Shown: in pieces, positions 10,910 to 32,189 of the stretch
Layout: each line of letters opens with the position of its first letter
Numbering within the stretch: the first letter of the stretch is position 1
NCBI RefSeq assembly: GCF_014640255.1
Contig: NZ_BMGP01000002.1
Location: 434,001 to 498,000, forward strand
Reading direction: 5' to 3'
Source of the DNA: Subtercola lobariae
GTDB lineage: Bacteria; Actinomycetota; Actinomycetes; Actinomycetales; Microbacteriaceae
Length of the DNA: 64,000 bases
Position numbers and translations under genes: made by a program
The notes under the pieces: model-generated
The model's input: the letters and a program-made list of their open reading frames with translations, nothing else
The model's database searches: none
Told to the model about the DNA's origin: nothing

Positions 10910-10971
10910 GTGAGCCCACTGTGCCCATTTGAGTCTGGTCAACCGGCCTCAATTCGACGTAATGGGCTCAC
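10910..10971. repeat. 62-bp dispersed palindromic repeat, copy 1
   Basis: Outer arms GTGAGCCCA/TGGGCTCAC and an inner arm pair TTGAG...CTCAA around GGT-CA-ACC. The same 62-bp element occurs at 31978 and 32128. It lies in the 305-bp spacer between the nucleoside hydrolase and the convergent NUDIX gene; the rest of that spacer is G+C-rich low-complexity sequence without a gene. Confidence 0.8.
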
Positions 10972-11137
10972 CGTGCGGGCGGAGCGCGCGCGGGGAGCAT
11001 CGACGGGCTCGGCAGGGCGGCACCGACACCGTGTGCGACCGACCGCGCGGATGCGGGCCGGATGTGCCCGGGGCTGCGCGGGCCGGGCCGGGCTGGCACG
11101 GTACGGGCCGGATAGGCCCGGGCCGGCGGGGTGCGGG

Positions 11138-11677
11138 CTAGTACAGGCGGCCGACCGAGGCTAGGGCGGCGCGGAGCAGGGCGCCGCGACCGCCTTCCAT
11201 TTCGGCATGGATGGCGTCACTGACCGCCTCTTGCGGGGTCATCCAGGTCAGTTCGAGGGCGTCTTGCCGGGGATCGCACGTACCCGTCACCGGAATGACG
11301 TAGGCCAGCGAAACCGCGTGCTGCCGATCATCCGTGTACGAACTGACGCCGGGTAGCGGAAAGTACTCGGCCACCGAGAACGGGATGGGGCTGGTGGGCA
11401 GCTGCGGAAAGGCCATGGGCCCGAGGTCTTTTTCGAGGTGACGGAAGAGCGCGTCACGCAGGGTTTCGCCGTACATGACGCGGCCCGAGACGATGGTGCG
11501 CGTCATGTTGCCGCTCGGCGACACGCGCAGCAGCACGCCCACCTCGGTGACCTGGCCGAGGCCGTCGACCCGCACGGGCACCGCTTCGACGTAAAGGAGG
11601 GGCAGGCGCCGCCTGATTTCGTCAAGCTCCTGGTCACTCAGCCAGCCGGGGTTCGGGTCAGGGGTGCGAACGCTCAT
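11138..11677 (-). CDS. DUF4916 (NUDIX-like) domain protein
   Basis: 179 residues. The protein opens with NPGWLSDQELDEIRRRLPLLYVEAVPVRVD, the typical DUF4916 beginning, and shows SGRVMYGETLRDALFRHLEKDLGP at the position of the NUDIX helix, but the canonical GX5EX7REUXEEXGU box is degenerate. DUF4916 members are NUDIX-fold proteins of actinobacteria without a proven substrate. The ATG is preceded on the minus strand by TAAGAAT and five bases, so it may also be leaderless. It is convergent with the nucleoside hydrolase and divergent from lhr. Confidence 0.88.
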   Translation of the reverse strand: MSVRTPDPNPGWLSDQELDEIRRRLPLLYVEAVPVRVDGLGQVTEVGVLLRVSPSGNMTRTIVSGRVMYGETLRDALFRHLEKDLGPMAFPQLPTSPIPFSVAEYFPLPGVSSYTDDRQHAVSLAYVIPVTGTCDPRQDALELTWMTPQEAVSDAIHAEMEGGRGALLRAALASVGRLY

Positions 11678-11889
11678 GATCCATTCTTACCTACCGCCGC
11701 ACCAGGTTCGTGCCAGGTTGATGCCAGGTTCGCGCAAGGTTCGCGCAAGGGGGGCGCAGTGTCGGTGGCATGGGTGAGGATGGGTAGATCGAAACAGACG
11801 TTCTCGCCAAGTTCTCTCCCGCCACCCGCGAGTGGTTCGGCGGGGCGTTCGCCGCGCCCACCGAGGCCCAACTGGGCGCCTGGCGGGCG

Positions 11890-14800
11890 GTGTCTGAGGG
11901 TTCGCACGCGCTGGTGGTGGCGCCCACCGGCTCGGGCAAAACGCTCGCGGCGTTCTTGTGGGCGATCGATCAGCTGATCAGCGCACCCCCGCCCGTGCCG
12001 AAGAAAGACGAGAACGGCAAAGACCGCCCGGTAGGCACTCGGGTGCTCTACATCTCGCCGCTCAAGGCACTGGCGGTCGACGTCGAGCGCAACCTGCGCG
12101 CGCCCCTGGTGGGCGTGACGCAGACCGCCAAGAGGCTCGGCACCGTTCCGCCGAGCATCAGCGTTGGGGTGCGCTCGGGCGACACGACGCAGAGCGATCG
12201 CCGCACCATGATCAAGAATCCGCCCGACATTCTCATCACCACGCCCGAGTCTTTATTCTTGATGCTCACCTCGGCCGCCCGCGAGACGCTCAGCTCGGTC
12301 GAGACCGTCATCATCGACGAAGTGCACGCCGTTGCGGCGACCAAACGTGGGGCGCATCTTGCGGTGAGCCTTGAACGATTGGATGCACTGCTCGAGCATC
12401 CCGCGCAGCGCATCGGCCTCTCAGCGACCGTGCGCCCGCCCGAAGAAGTGGCCCGGTTTCTCGCCGGCGGAGCCGCTGTCACCATCGTTGCCCCGGTCTC
12501 GACGAAGAAGTTCGACCTGCGCGTGGTGGTGCCCATCGAAGACATGAGCGACCTCGGGGCGGCTCCGACGCTCGAAGGCTCGGCTGCCGCCGCGACGCCG
12601 CAGCAGGGTTCGATCTGGCCGCACGTCGAAGAGAGCATTGTCGACCGGATACTGCAGCACCGGTCATCCATCGTCTTCGCGAACTCGCGGCGGCTCGCCG
12701 AGCGGCTGACCGCGCGGTTGAACGAGATCTATGCCGAGCGGCTCGGCGATCTGGAACCCGACGAGGCGGTGCTCGCGCACGCGGTGCGGCTGTCGGGCAG
12801 CGATCGCAGCCGGCCGGGCGAGGCGCGTGGTAGCGCGGGATCGGCCCGAGGCTTCGCGGGTGAGGCGGGCGGCGGCGGAATCGCGGACCGCGGCGGCGCT
12901 GCGGGTGGCGGCAGCCGCGCGAGCGGGAGCGGTGCGGGCATCCGGCGGTCACCAGCCGAGTTGATGGCGCAGAGTGGGCAGACCGAAGGGGCCGAGCCGC
13001 TCCTCGCGCGAGCGCACCACGGGTCGGTCAGCAAAGAGCAGCGCGCCATCATCGAAGACGACCTCAAGACAGGGCGGCTGCGCTGCGTGGTGGCGACCTC
13101 GAGCCTTGAGCTCGGTATCGACATGGGCGCGGTCGATCTCGTGGTGCAGGTGGAGTCGCCGCCGTCGGTGGCCAGCGGGCTGCAGCGCGTCGGGCGCGCC
13201 GGACATCAGGTGGGTGAAGTCTCGCGGGGGGTGATCTACCCTAAGCATCGGGCCGATCTGATCCATTCCGCGGTGGCGGCACAGCGCATGACCGACGGTC
13301 TCATCGAGTCGCTCGCGGTGCCGAAGAACCCGCTCGACATTCTCGCCCAGCAGACCGTCGCGGCCTGCGCGCTCGAGGCGATCGACGTCGAAGAATGGTT
13401 CGACACGGTCAAGCGCAGCGCGCCATTCTCGAGTATGCCTCGATCGGCATATGAGGCCACACTCGACCTGCTGGCCGGAAGGTACCCGTCTGACGAGTTC
13501 GCCGAGTTGCGGCCGCGCATCGTCTGGGATCGTGATGCCGGAACGATCACCGGCCGCCCCGGCGCGCAACGACTGGCCGTGACCAGCGGCGGCACCATCC
13601 CCGACCGCGGTCTCTTCGGCGTGTTCATGGTGGGCGAAACCGCGTCACGGGTCGGCGAGCTCGACGAGGAGATGGTCTACGAGTCCCGAGTCGGCGACGT
13701 GTTCGCGTTGGGGGCGACGAGCTGGCGCATCCAGGAGATCACGCACGACCAGGTTCGCGTCACTCCGGCGTTCGGCGAGCCCGGGCGGCTGCCATTCTGG
13801 CGCGGTGATGGGCTCGGCAGGCCGGCGGAACTCGGCCGCGCCATTGGTGAATTCACCCGAACGGTGAGCGGAGCATCCGCTGACCGCGCGTTGGAGATTG
13901 CCCAGAAGGCGGGGCTCGACGAGAACGCCAGCGCGAACCTGACTCAGTTCATCGGGGAGCAGCGCGAGGCGACCGGGCACGTGCCGAGCGACCAGACGCT
14001 GGTCGTCGAACGGTTTCGAGATGAACTCGGCGATTGGCGAGTGATCTTGCATTCCCCGTACGGCATGCAAGTGCATTCGCCGTGGGCTCTGGCCATCGGG
14101 GCGCGCATTCGAGAGCGGTTCGGCGTCGATGGCGGGGTTGTTGCGAGCGACGACGGCATTGTGGTGCGGCTGCCCGACACAGAGAGCGACCCGCCCGGCG
14201 CAGACCTGTTCGTGTTCAGCGCTGACGAGCTCGAGATCATCGTGACCACCGAGGTGGGTGGCTCAGCGCTGTTCGCGTCGCGGTTTCGCGAGAACGCAGC
14301 TCGGGCGCTGTTGTTGCCGCGGCAGAATCCGGGTAAGCGGTCGCCGCTCTGGCAGCAGCGGCAGCGGTCTGCCCAGTTGCTCGAGGTCGCACGGCGGTAT
14401 CCGACGTTTCCGATCATTCTCGAGACCGTTCGCGAGTGCCTGCAAGACGTCTACGATCTGCCGTCGCTCAAGGCACTCGCGGGCGAGATCGAGAGCCGGC
14501 GAATTCGCATCGTCGAGACAGAGACTCCCGAGCCGTCGCCGTTCGCGCGTTCGCTGCTCTTCGGTTACGTCGCGTCATTCGTTTACGAGGGCGACAGCCC
14601 ACTGGCTGAGCGGCGGGCGGCGGCTTTGTCGCTCGACCCCACGCTGCTGGCCGAACTTTTGGGGCGCGCCGAGTTGCGCGAGCTGCTCGACCCTGGCGTC
14701 ATCGAACAGACCGAACGCGAGCTGCAGCGGCTCGCCCCGGGCCGAAAGGCCTCTGGCGTTGAGGGTGTCGCCGACCTGGTGCGGATGCTCGGGCCGCTCA

Positions 14801-31907: not shown

Positions 31908-31919
31908 TGAACCGGTTCG
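31908..31919. promoter_or_regulatory. LacI-type operator of the GH5 gene
   Basis: TGAACCGGTTCG, an 11 of 12 bp match to a perfect CG-centred palindrome TGAACCGGTTCA, in the leader of the GH5-type gene. The same TGAACCG half lies at the first gene of the operon (40853). Confidence 0.65.
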
Positions 31920-31977
31920 GTACGGGTATGTGCATGTGGATGATCGGGCGGCTCCTTCGCCGGCAACCTCCCGCTTC

Positions 31978-32039
31978 GTGAGCCCGCTACCCCCAAGTGA
32001 GCCTGGTAGACCGGACTCAATTCGACCCAACGGTCTCAC
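31978..32039. repeat. 62-bp dispersed palindromic repeat, copy 2
   Basis: Outer arms GTGAGCCCG/CGGTCTCAC and inner GAG.C.GGTAGACCGG.CTC. Same length and order of arms as copies at 10910 and 32128. Confidence 0.8.
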
Positions 32040-32127
32040 TTGGCGTAGTACGTAGAGCGGTGGAGCGGATCGTGCGATGGAGCGGAGACGGGCGGGGCTG
32101 CAAATCGGGCGGAGCGAGCCGAGGGTC

Positions 32128-32189
32128 GTGAGCCCGTTACGCCCAATTGAGCCCGGTAGACCGGCCTCAATTCGACCTAGCGGTCTCAC
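32128..32189. repeat. 62-bp dispersed palindromic repeat, copy 3
   Basis: Outer arms GTGAGCCCGTTA/TAGCGGTCTCAC and inner arms TTGAGCCCGGT/ACCGGCCTCAA separated by AG. It is in the same orientation as copy 2, 150 bp away. The 416-bp spacer 31868-32283 holds two copies of this repeat, the GH5 operator and a G-rich tract; no gene. Confidence 0.82.

What the first reader, a model, noticed from the sequence alone, without database searches (positions are those of the whole stretch)
10910..32189. 62-bp dispersed palindrome with covarying arms, three copies
Copies at 10910-10971, 31978-32039 and 32128-32189 have identical length and arm order: outer arms GTGAGCCC(A/G)...(T/C)GG(G/T)CTCAC and an inner hairpin (T/G)TGAG.C.GGT-NN-ACCGG.CTCAA. 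The ninth outer base pair is A-T in copy 1 and G-C in copies 2 and 3, a compensatory change, so the structure is selected. All are intergenic. They have no coding capacity, so they resemble REP/BIME or a small non-autonomous mobile repeat. I know of no named family with this sequence.
Basis: seen in the sequence. Interest (0 to 1): 0.75.

Follow-up and report, generated by a model that had tools for sequence, protein, structure and literature searches.

The report
Four-box palindromes at gene ends
A soil bacterium of the genus Subtercola carries about 55 copies of a 62-letter mirror-image DNA repeat, mostly behind its genes; it is built from 19-letter blocks, often sits in the same gap in related species, shows no sign of recent jumping, and has no known partner protein.

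Summary
The three 62-bp copies are real and exactly where stated. They belong to a family of 55 places in this 4.09-Mb Subtercola draft genome, and 8 of 11 congeners carry it. With 50-103 copies, pairing is significant mainly in the spacers (15-19 with 44-48), while the boxes (TGAG.C) are nearly invariant. Each arm has two head-to-tail units 19 bp apart; a few arms have more. Copies sit mostly behind genes, seldom between divergent genes. Of 49 copy-bearing gaps, 13 also hold a copy in relative G002, against 1 of 118 copy-free gaps (p 4e-7); insertion into hot spots is not excluded, since orthologous copies are hardly more alike than others. No dispersed pair in four genomes exceeds 87% identity; no target duplications, no isolated arm, no RAYT gene in 12 Subtercola genomes. 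So it resembles REP/BIME in setting but fails the REP tests made, and recent mobility is unsupported. Best guess, mostly inferred: a binding platform for an unidentified protein acting as a gene-end boundary. A second family with different boxes (CGAGAGAA, 68 bp) has the same geometry.

The parts
10910..10971 (.). Copy 1 of the 62-bp four-box palindrome, between a nucleoside hydrolase gene (9852-10832 +) and a DUF4916/NUDIX gene (11138-11677 -), convergent
   Evidence: the same gap has a model match in G002, G004, G006 and none in G001, G003, G005 (389 bases held on that side), G007, G008; G009-G011 not examined
31978..32039 (.). Copy 2, between the LacI-family gene (32284-33300 -) and the glycosyl hydrolase gene (29924-31867 -), tandem
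32128..32189 (.). Copy 3, same gap as copy 2, start-to-start 150 bp, 89% identical to copy 2: probably a local duplication
10911..10914 (+). Outer box TGAG of copy 1 (element positions 2-5)
   Evidence: 49, 50, 50 and 50 of 50 copies
10930..10933 (+). Inner box TGAG of copy 1 (positions 21-24), 19 bp after the outer box
   Evidence: T 41, G 48, A 48, G 50 of 50 copies
10948..10951 (-). Inner box of the right arm (CTCA, positions 39-42)
   Evidence: 50, 49, 50 and 45 of 50 copies
10967..10970 (-). Outer box of the right arm (CTCA, positions 58-61)
   Evidence: 50, 49, 50 and 48 of 50 copies
10924..10928 (.). Left spacer (positions 15-19), mostly variable between copies, tends to pair with the right spacer
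10953..10957 (.). Right spacer (positions 44-48)

Best explanation
A genus-level family of inverted arrays of about 19-bp units. Each arm has two units (some arms have one, a few three or four) that begin with TGAG; the arms face each other. SHOWN: the family, its fixed geometry, near-invariant boxes, a pairing signal in the variable spacers, position mostly behind genes, sharing of gaps between species. INFERRED: an unidentified sequence-specific protein binds the boxes, the symmetric spacers let the DNA fold back as a hairpin or cruciform, and the complex acts as a boundary between neighbouring transcription units (roadblock, insulator or supercoil sink).
For: 50 of the 58 places handled are exactly 62 bp and align without gaps; TGAG, C7 and mirror images are near or fully invariant while variable positions carry about 0.2-0.7 bit. 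Odd lengths are rare: 5 of 58, 4 of 49, 2 of 25 and 3 of 21 copies in G000, G002, G006, G009, although G002 and G009 have 18 and 12 copies of 64 bp, so both arms change together. Extra units at -19 (6) and -20 (5) of 305 arms, about 0.3 expected per offset. Context of 153 copies: 67 convergent, 64 tandem, 10 divergent, 11 inside, 1 unclear. Same-gap sharing: G002 13 of 49 copy-bearing against 1 of 118 copy-free gaps, p 3.7e-7; G009 6 of 49 against 0 of 118, p 5e-4; G006 5 of 49 against 1 of 118, p 0.009. No match in G001, G010, G011 with model R2, as expected if a trans-acting factor were absent. A second family with different boxes has the same 19-bp spacing and paired spacers.
Against: No protein was identified. 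Spacer pairing is not needed for a simple operator. Orthologous copies are hardly more alike (0.724) than non-orthologous ones (0.709); in 8 orthologous 62-62 pairs boxes are 0.938, other positions 0.406 identical, against 0.897 and 0.407 in 180 non-orthologous pairs, so retention rests on the shared gaps alone and repeated insertion into favoured gaps would fit too. Box conservation is partly ascertained, since copies were found by the model. Terminator-like sites are as frequent in gaps with a copy (convergent 15 of 50 gene ends, tandem 9 of 24) as without (8 of 46, 29 of 95). For convergent gaps alone the sharing is not significant in G006 (p 0.27) or G009 (p 0.065).
Confidence: 0.35

Rival explanations
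1. A REP- or MITE-like non-autonomous mobile palindrome that spread by a transposase now lost or outside the tested family, prefers gaps behind genes, and persists partly as relics or for a secondary role.
For: Dispersed, multi-copy, mostly behind genes; genome-specific consensus; matches in 16 of 249 genomes, 10 of 85 genera of the family; no match in some congeners; orthologous copies no more alike than others. REPs are reported predominantly in unidirectional and convergent gaps (PMC3733652, passages).
Against: PF01797 in 0 of 12 Subtercola genomes; no isolated arm in the own genome; no dispersed pair above 87% identity among 57, 47, 25 and 21 copies; no excess of target duplications in 135 copies; same-gap sharing well above that of copy-free gaps.
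Confidence: 0.33
2. An RNA hairpin in the 3' untranslated region: a terminator without U-tract or an mRNA 3' stabiliser.
For: Position mostly behind genes; strong predicted hairpins in several copies; spacer pairing.
Against: In tandem copies of 62 or 64 bp the transcribed strand has no excess of G-U over A-C (94 against 103 cells); several variable pairs do not covary and 27/36 and 30/33 are anti-paired; a plain hairpin needs no invariant boxes; terminator-like sites are not depleted beside copies.
Confidence: 0.2
3. Operators of one regulator's regulon.
For: Symmetric invariant boxes; in 4 of the 10 gaps whose neighbours were scanned one neighbour is a regulator (XRE-type, AraC-type, penicillinase-repressor type, LacI).
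Against: Only 2 of 58 own copies lie between divergent genes; the other neighbours scanned share no function: RuvC/RuvA, BipA, ketoacyl synthase/DUF3145, RbpA, UvrA and others. Only 10 gaps were scanned.
Confidence: 0.05
4. A recombination site of integron attC type.
For: Imperfect palindrome of similar size behind genes, with species-specific consensus (features of attC recalled).
Against: Boxes within an arm are direct, not inverted; copies are scattered over the chromosome rather than in cassette arrays. An integrase was not searched for.
Confidence: 0.03

Closest known systems
REP / BIME elements with RAYT transposases
   Same: Short intergenic palindromes in many copies, mainly in unidirectional and convergent gaps, clusters, sub-families with alternative complementary stem letters (PMC3733652, passages)
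   Different: 62/64 bp against the 20-40 bp given there; no unpaired GTAG or CGTC tag (the GTGAG end pairs with CTCAC); no PF01797 in 12 Subtercola genomes; built of 19-bp direct units
MITEs (features recalled)
   Same: Small, non-coding, dispersed, long inverted arms
   Different: No excess of target duplications, no isolated arm in the own genome, gaps shared between species
Intrinsic or tractless terminators (features recalled)
   Same: Hairpin potential behind genes
   Different: Near-invariant boxes, T-run in 1 of 306 outward flanks, no sense-strand G-U signal, terminator-like sites equally frequent in gaps with a copy
Integron attC sites (recalled)
   Same: Imperfect palindrome behind genes
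   Different: Box orientation and chromosomal setting differ; integrase not tested

Membership tests
RAYT-associated REP | RAYT (Y1 transposase, PF01797) gene in the genome | tested here: not met
   0 of 12 Subtercola genomes, 2 of 40 genomes in all; 5 of 14 control genomes ring
RAYT-associated REP | Unpaired GTAG or CGTC tag at one end | tested here: not met
   Ends are GTGAG and CTCAC, which pair with each other; definition from passages of PMC3733652
RAYT-associated REP | Length 20-40 bp | tested here: not met
   62 or 64 bp in 135 of 153 copies with enough flank, others 44-81 bp; 20-40 bp is from PMC3733652
RAYT-associated REP | Intergenic, mostly convergent or unidirectional gaps | tested here: met
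   67 convergent and 64 tandem of 153
MITE | Target-site duplication | tested here: not met
   135 copies of 62 or 64 bp, k = 2-9, no excess over shuffled flanks; old insertions could have lost it
MITE | Parent transposon with the same ends in the genome | tested here: not met
   93 of 94 arm hits lie inside the listed palindromes, the other is a third unit adjoining one of them; pattern allowed 1 mismatch, own genome only
MITE | Near-identical dispersed copies or empty sites | tested here: inconclusive
   No dispersed pair above 87% in four genomes; empty sites need closer strains than those held
Intrinsic terminator | GC-rich stem followed by a T-run | tested here: not met
   TTTT or at least 6 T in 1 of 306 outward 10-nt flanks, window background 0.7%
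Described RNA family | Match to an Rfam model at its gathering score | tested here: not met
   0 matches in the window
Integron attC site | Integron integrase and inverted R/L boxes | not tested
   No search for an integrase; boxes are direct within an arm

The most novel reading that the evidence does not exclude
Subtercola uses a class of gene-end DNA devices with one fixed geometry (two direct boxes 19 bp apart per arm, arms inverted, spacers free to vary but kept complementary) and interchangeable box sequences (TGAGGCC family, CGAGAGAA family), each read by its own paralogous DNA-binding protein that engages a folded hairpin or cruciform: a bacterial boundary system not based on RAYT, ordinary terminators or known nucleoid sites.
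Probability: 0.2. Interest if true: 0.78.

Novelty: new variant of a known kind. Interest (0 to 1): 0.53.

Why it matters
Many dispersed bacterial palindromes are tied to RAYT transposases (PMC3733652, passages). Here is a family for which no RAYT was found, whose copies recur in the same gaps in species only 54-60% identical at fourfold sites of the neighbouring genes. Either it is kept by a function at gene ends, or several species' copies chose the same gaps independently; both can be tested. Two families with different boxes and one geometry suggest a common mechanism and a search for paralogous partner proteins.

Tried and rejected
RAYT partner: PF01797 absent from 12 of 12 Subtercola genomes. 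Resident transposon with the same ends: the arm pattern found only the palindromes. Target duplications: no excess. RNA-level selection: no G-U bias on the transcribed strand. Replacement of intrinsic terminators: no difference, with a crude home-made detector. Regulon: Pfam of 20 neighbours at 10 gaps, chosen mostly because shared with relatives, gave no common theme, though 4 of 10 gaps have a regulator as neighbour. A larger unit made of paired copies: spacings and gap sequences differ by eye. Literature: searches listed no paper on such a family in Subtercola or Microbacteriaceae (listings and abstract starts seen; PMC3733652 and PMC12306157 seen as passages); the library holds open-licence papers only.

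Limits and results against the reading. Genes were called by a home-made codon-usage caller; the background gaps include gaps with copies and come from regions around copies. Orthologous copies are about as alike as non-orthologous ones. After this check the control led me to lower the boundary reading from 0.38 to 0.35, the novel case from 0.22 to 0.20, and to raise the mobile-repeat rival from 0.30 to 0.33. In relatives alone (53 copies of 62 bp) only 8/55, 15/48 and 18/45 are significant; 17/46 and 19/44 are not. Model R1 at E <= 0.01 also matched G011 once (2e-4), G017 of another genus 11 times and G026 of another family once; R2 at E <= 0.001 matched none of these. Dropped rows: two G002 places without a fetched locus, leaving 58 + 95 = 153; of the 58 own places three are weaker than E 0.001; the 50 of exactly 62 bp were used. 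One search used 7 of 8 orthologous 62-62 pairs; one search repeats it with all 8. One-sided sharing gave 20, 10 and 8 of 58. The 17 CGAGAGAA copies were picked from 20 loci by an expression that fixes boxes and 68-bp geometry, and were shuffled across genomes together, which can inflate pairing.
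Full report
OBSERVATION. The three copies are at the stated coordinates, 62 bp each, between predicted genes. No Rfam family matches the window. blastn with copy 2 finds 11 places in the own genome, 4,088,613 bases in 22 contigs. Model R1, built on these 11, finds 55 places at E <= 0.001, counted once per place from the list. Model R2, built on 41 copies of four genomes, finds these three in the window and nothing else below E 0.6.

WHERE IT LIVES. A congener's contig (G007:C24) has the length and gene position of Subtercola boreus NZ_NBXD01000024.1, so the genus is Subtercola, family Microbacteriaceae. 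With R2 at E <= 0.001, 8 of 11 congeners match, G001, G010 and G011 do not, and no other genus among the 40 genomes does. With R1 at E <= 0.01, G011 had one match (2e-4), G017 of another genus 11 and G026 of another family one. With R1 and stricter filters 16 of 249 genomes of the family matched, in 10 of 85 genera. Of 23 loci given out of 80 fetched, one of Cryobacterium zongtaii (E 1e-9) and one of Herbiconiux (E 0.002) match.

ANATOMY. 50 of 58 own places are exactly 62 bp. Near-invariant: TGAG at 2-5, C7, T11, C16, GAG at 22-24, C26, G28, T30 and their mirror images; variable: 10, 15, 18, 19, 25, 29. The inner box follows the outer by 19 bp. Extra units lie outside some arms at -19 (6) and -20 (5) of 305 arms, two of them with a further unit; over all 95 offsets there were 57 direct and 56 inverted hits against 29 expected, so only -19 and -20 stand out. 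44-bp copies appear to have one unit per arm. G002 has 26 copies of 62 and 18 of 64 bp among 49, G009 6 and 12 among 21; odd lengths are 14 of 153.

PAIRING. On 11 copies covariation does not exceed shuffles. On 50 own copies total Watson-Crick pairs are 1109 against 1064.5 +- 10.1; 15/48, 17/46, 18/45 and 19/44 are significant, 9/54 (p 0.011) and 2/61 (p 0.047) weakly. Pooled within four genomes (103 copies) the four spacer pairs stay at z 4.0-5.4, 8/55 and 2/61 are marginal, 27/36 and 30/33 anti-paired; 30 copies of 64 bp show pairing in the corresponding segment (15, 18, 19, 20) with three marginal pairs elsewhere. Without the own copies (53) 8/55, 15/48 and 18/45 are significant, 17/46 and 19/44 not. 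Between genomes many more pairs co-change, which reflects genome-specific consensus.

CONTEXT. First count of own copies: 25 tandem, 22 convergent, 2 divergent, 9 overlapping, 7 of the last by a stop codon in the element's end; own gaps of 80 bp or more were 100 tandem, 45 convergent, 54 divergent, copy-bearing gaps included. Over 153 copies in four genomes: 64 tandem, 67 convergent, 10 divergent (2 of 58, 4 of 49, 3 of 25, 1 of 21), 11 inside, 1 unclear; ten genes take their stop codon from the element's terminal TGA; tandem copies are nearer the upstream stop than the downstream start in 45 of 64. Twenty neighbours at 10 gaps share no function; four of the gaps adjoin a regulator gene.

SHARED GAPS, NO RECENT DISPERSAL. 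With both flanking genes required, a G002 copy lies in the same gap for 13 of 49 copy-bearing against 1 of 118 copy-free gaps (p 3.7e-7), G009 6 against 0, G006 5 against 1; 19 of 51 copy-bearing gaps are shared with at least one. The gap of copy 1 has a match in G002, G004 and G006, none in G001, G003, G005 (389 bases held on that side), G007, G008. In 8 orthologous 62-62 pairs boxes are 0.938, other positions 0.406, flanks 0.34 identical; but 180 non-orthologous pairs give 0.897, 0.407 and 0.32, and whole copies 0.724 against 0.709. Fourfold sites of neighbouring genes are 0.54-0.60 identical. So retention is argued from position, not from sequence, and insertion into favoured gaps is not excluded. 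No dispersed pair exceeds 87% identity, while neighbours within 300 bp reach 98, 95 and 89%: recent copying is local. No excess of target duplications, no lone arm, no RAYT.

MECHANISM. Near-invariant boxes at fixed spacing, symmetric length change, lack of matches in some congeners and paired but variable spacers fit a protein that reads four boxes on DNA able to fold back; the position suggests a boundary role. This is inference. Transcribed-strand G-U against A-C (94, 103) speaks against RNA; terminator counts and the lack of T-runs (1 of 306 flanks) against an ordinary terminator.

A SECOND FAMILY. A scan for palindromes showed three copies of a 68-70-bp element with CGAGAGAA-like boxes 19 bp apart in each arm. 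An arm pattern with that spacing built in finds it in G000, G002, G005 and G009 (14, 19, 13 and 4 strand hits of 14 genomes searched; control 0). Seventeen copies fitting the fixed 68-bp geometry, from 20 loci, have 129 of 187 spacer pairs against 104.3 expected, z 5.2, shuffled across genomes. A third, 56-bp palindrome (CCGTTTTGCGCAAAAGCAC arms) gives 73 arm hits in S. boreus G007, two of them forming a copy in the gap orthologous to copy 1.

VERDICT. A real family, not found in the seven literature searches made, REP-like in setting but failing the RAYT, tag and length tests; a new variant of dispersed palindromic repeats with an open, testable function.

Noticed in passing
L266, L267, L270, L271, L274, L275, L279 and others (own genome e.g. 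G000:C5:302958, C2:412202): Second dispersed family, 68-bp palindrome with CGAGAGAA boxes 19 bp apart in each arm and paired variable spacers; about 12 places in the own genome by my count.
   Followed up: partly
L094:10960-11015; G007 in many places: 56-bp palindrome CCGTTTTGCGCAAAAGCAC..., 73 arm hits in S. boreus G007 and 26 in G009; one copy lies in the gap orthologous to copy 1 of the finding.
   Followed up: partly
L060 (G000:C3:43573-43861): Three copies of the 62-bp family in a row between ruvC and ruvA, outer two 98% identical, at least two preceded by an extra degenerate unit: local amplification.
   Followed up: partly
L175:2681-2757 and 2883-2959: Two nearly identical 77-bp palindromes (GACAACGGTCGGAGCTGAG...) on the other side of the nucleoside hydrolase gene in G002; perhaps another family.
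   Followed up: no
window 9761-9814: Ordinary terminator-like hairpin with T-run between the DEAD-box helicase and nucleoside hydrolase genes.
   Followed up: no
153 copies in four genomes: Ten genes take their stop codon from the TGA in the terminal GTGAG of a copy.
   Followed up: partly
10 scanned gaps of the own genome: Four of ten gaps with a copy adjoin a regulator gene (XRE, AraC-type, penicillinase-repressor type, LacI); whether this exceeds chance was not tested.
   Followed up: no
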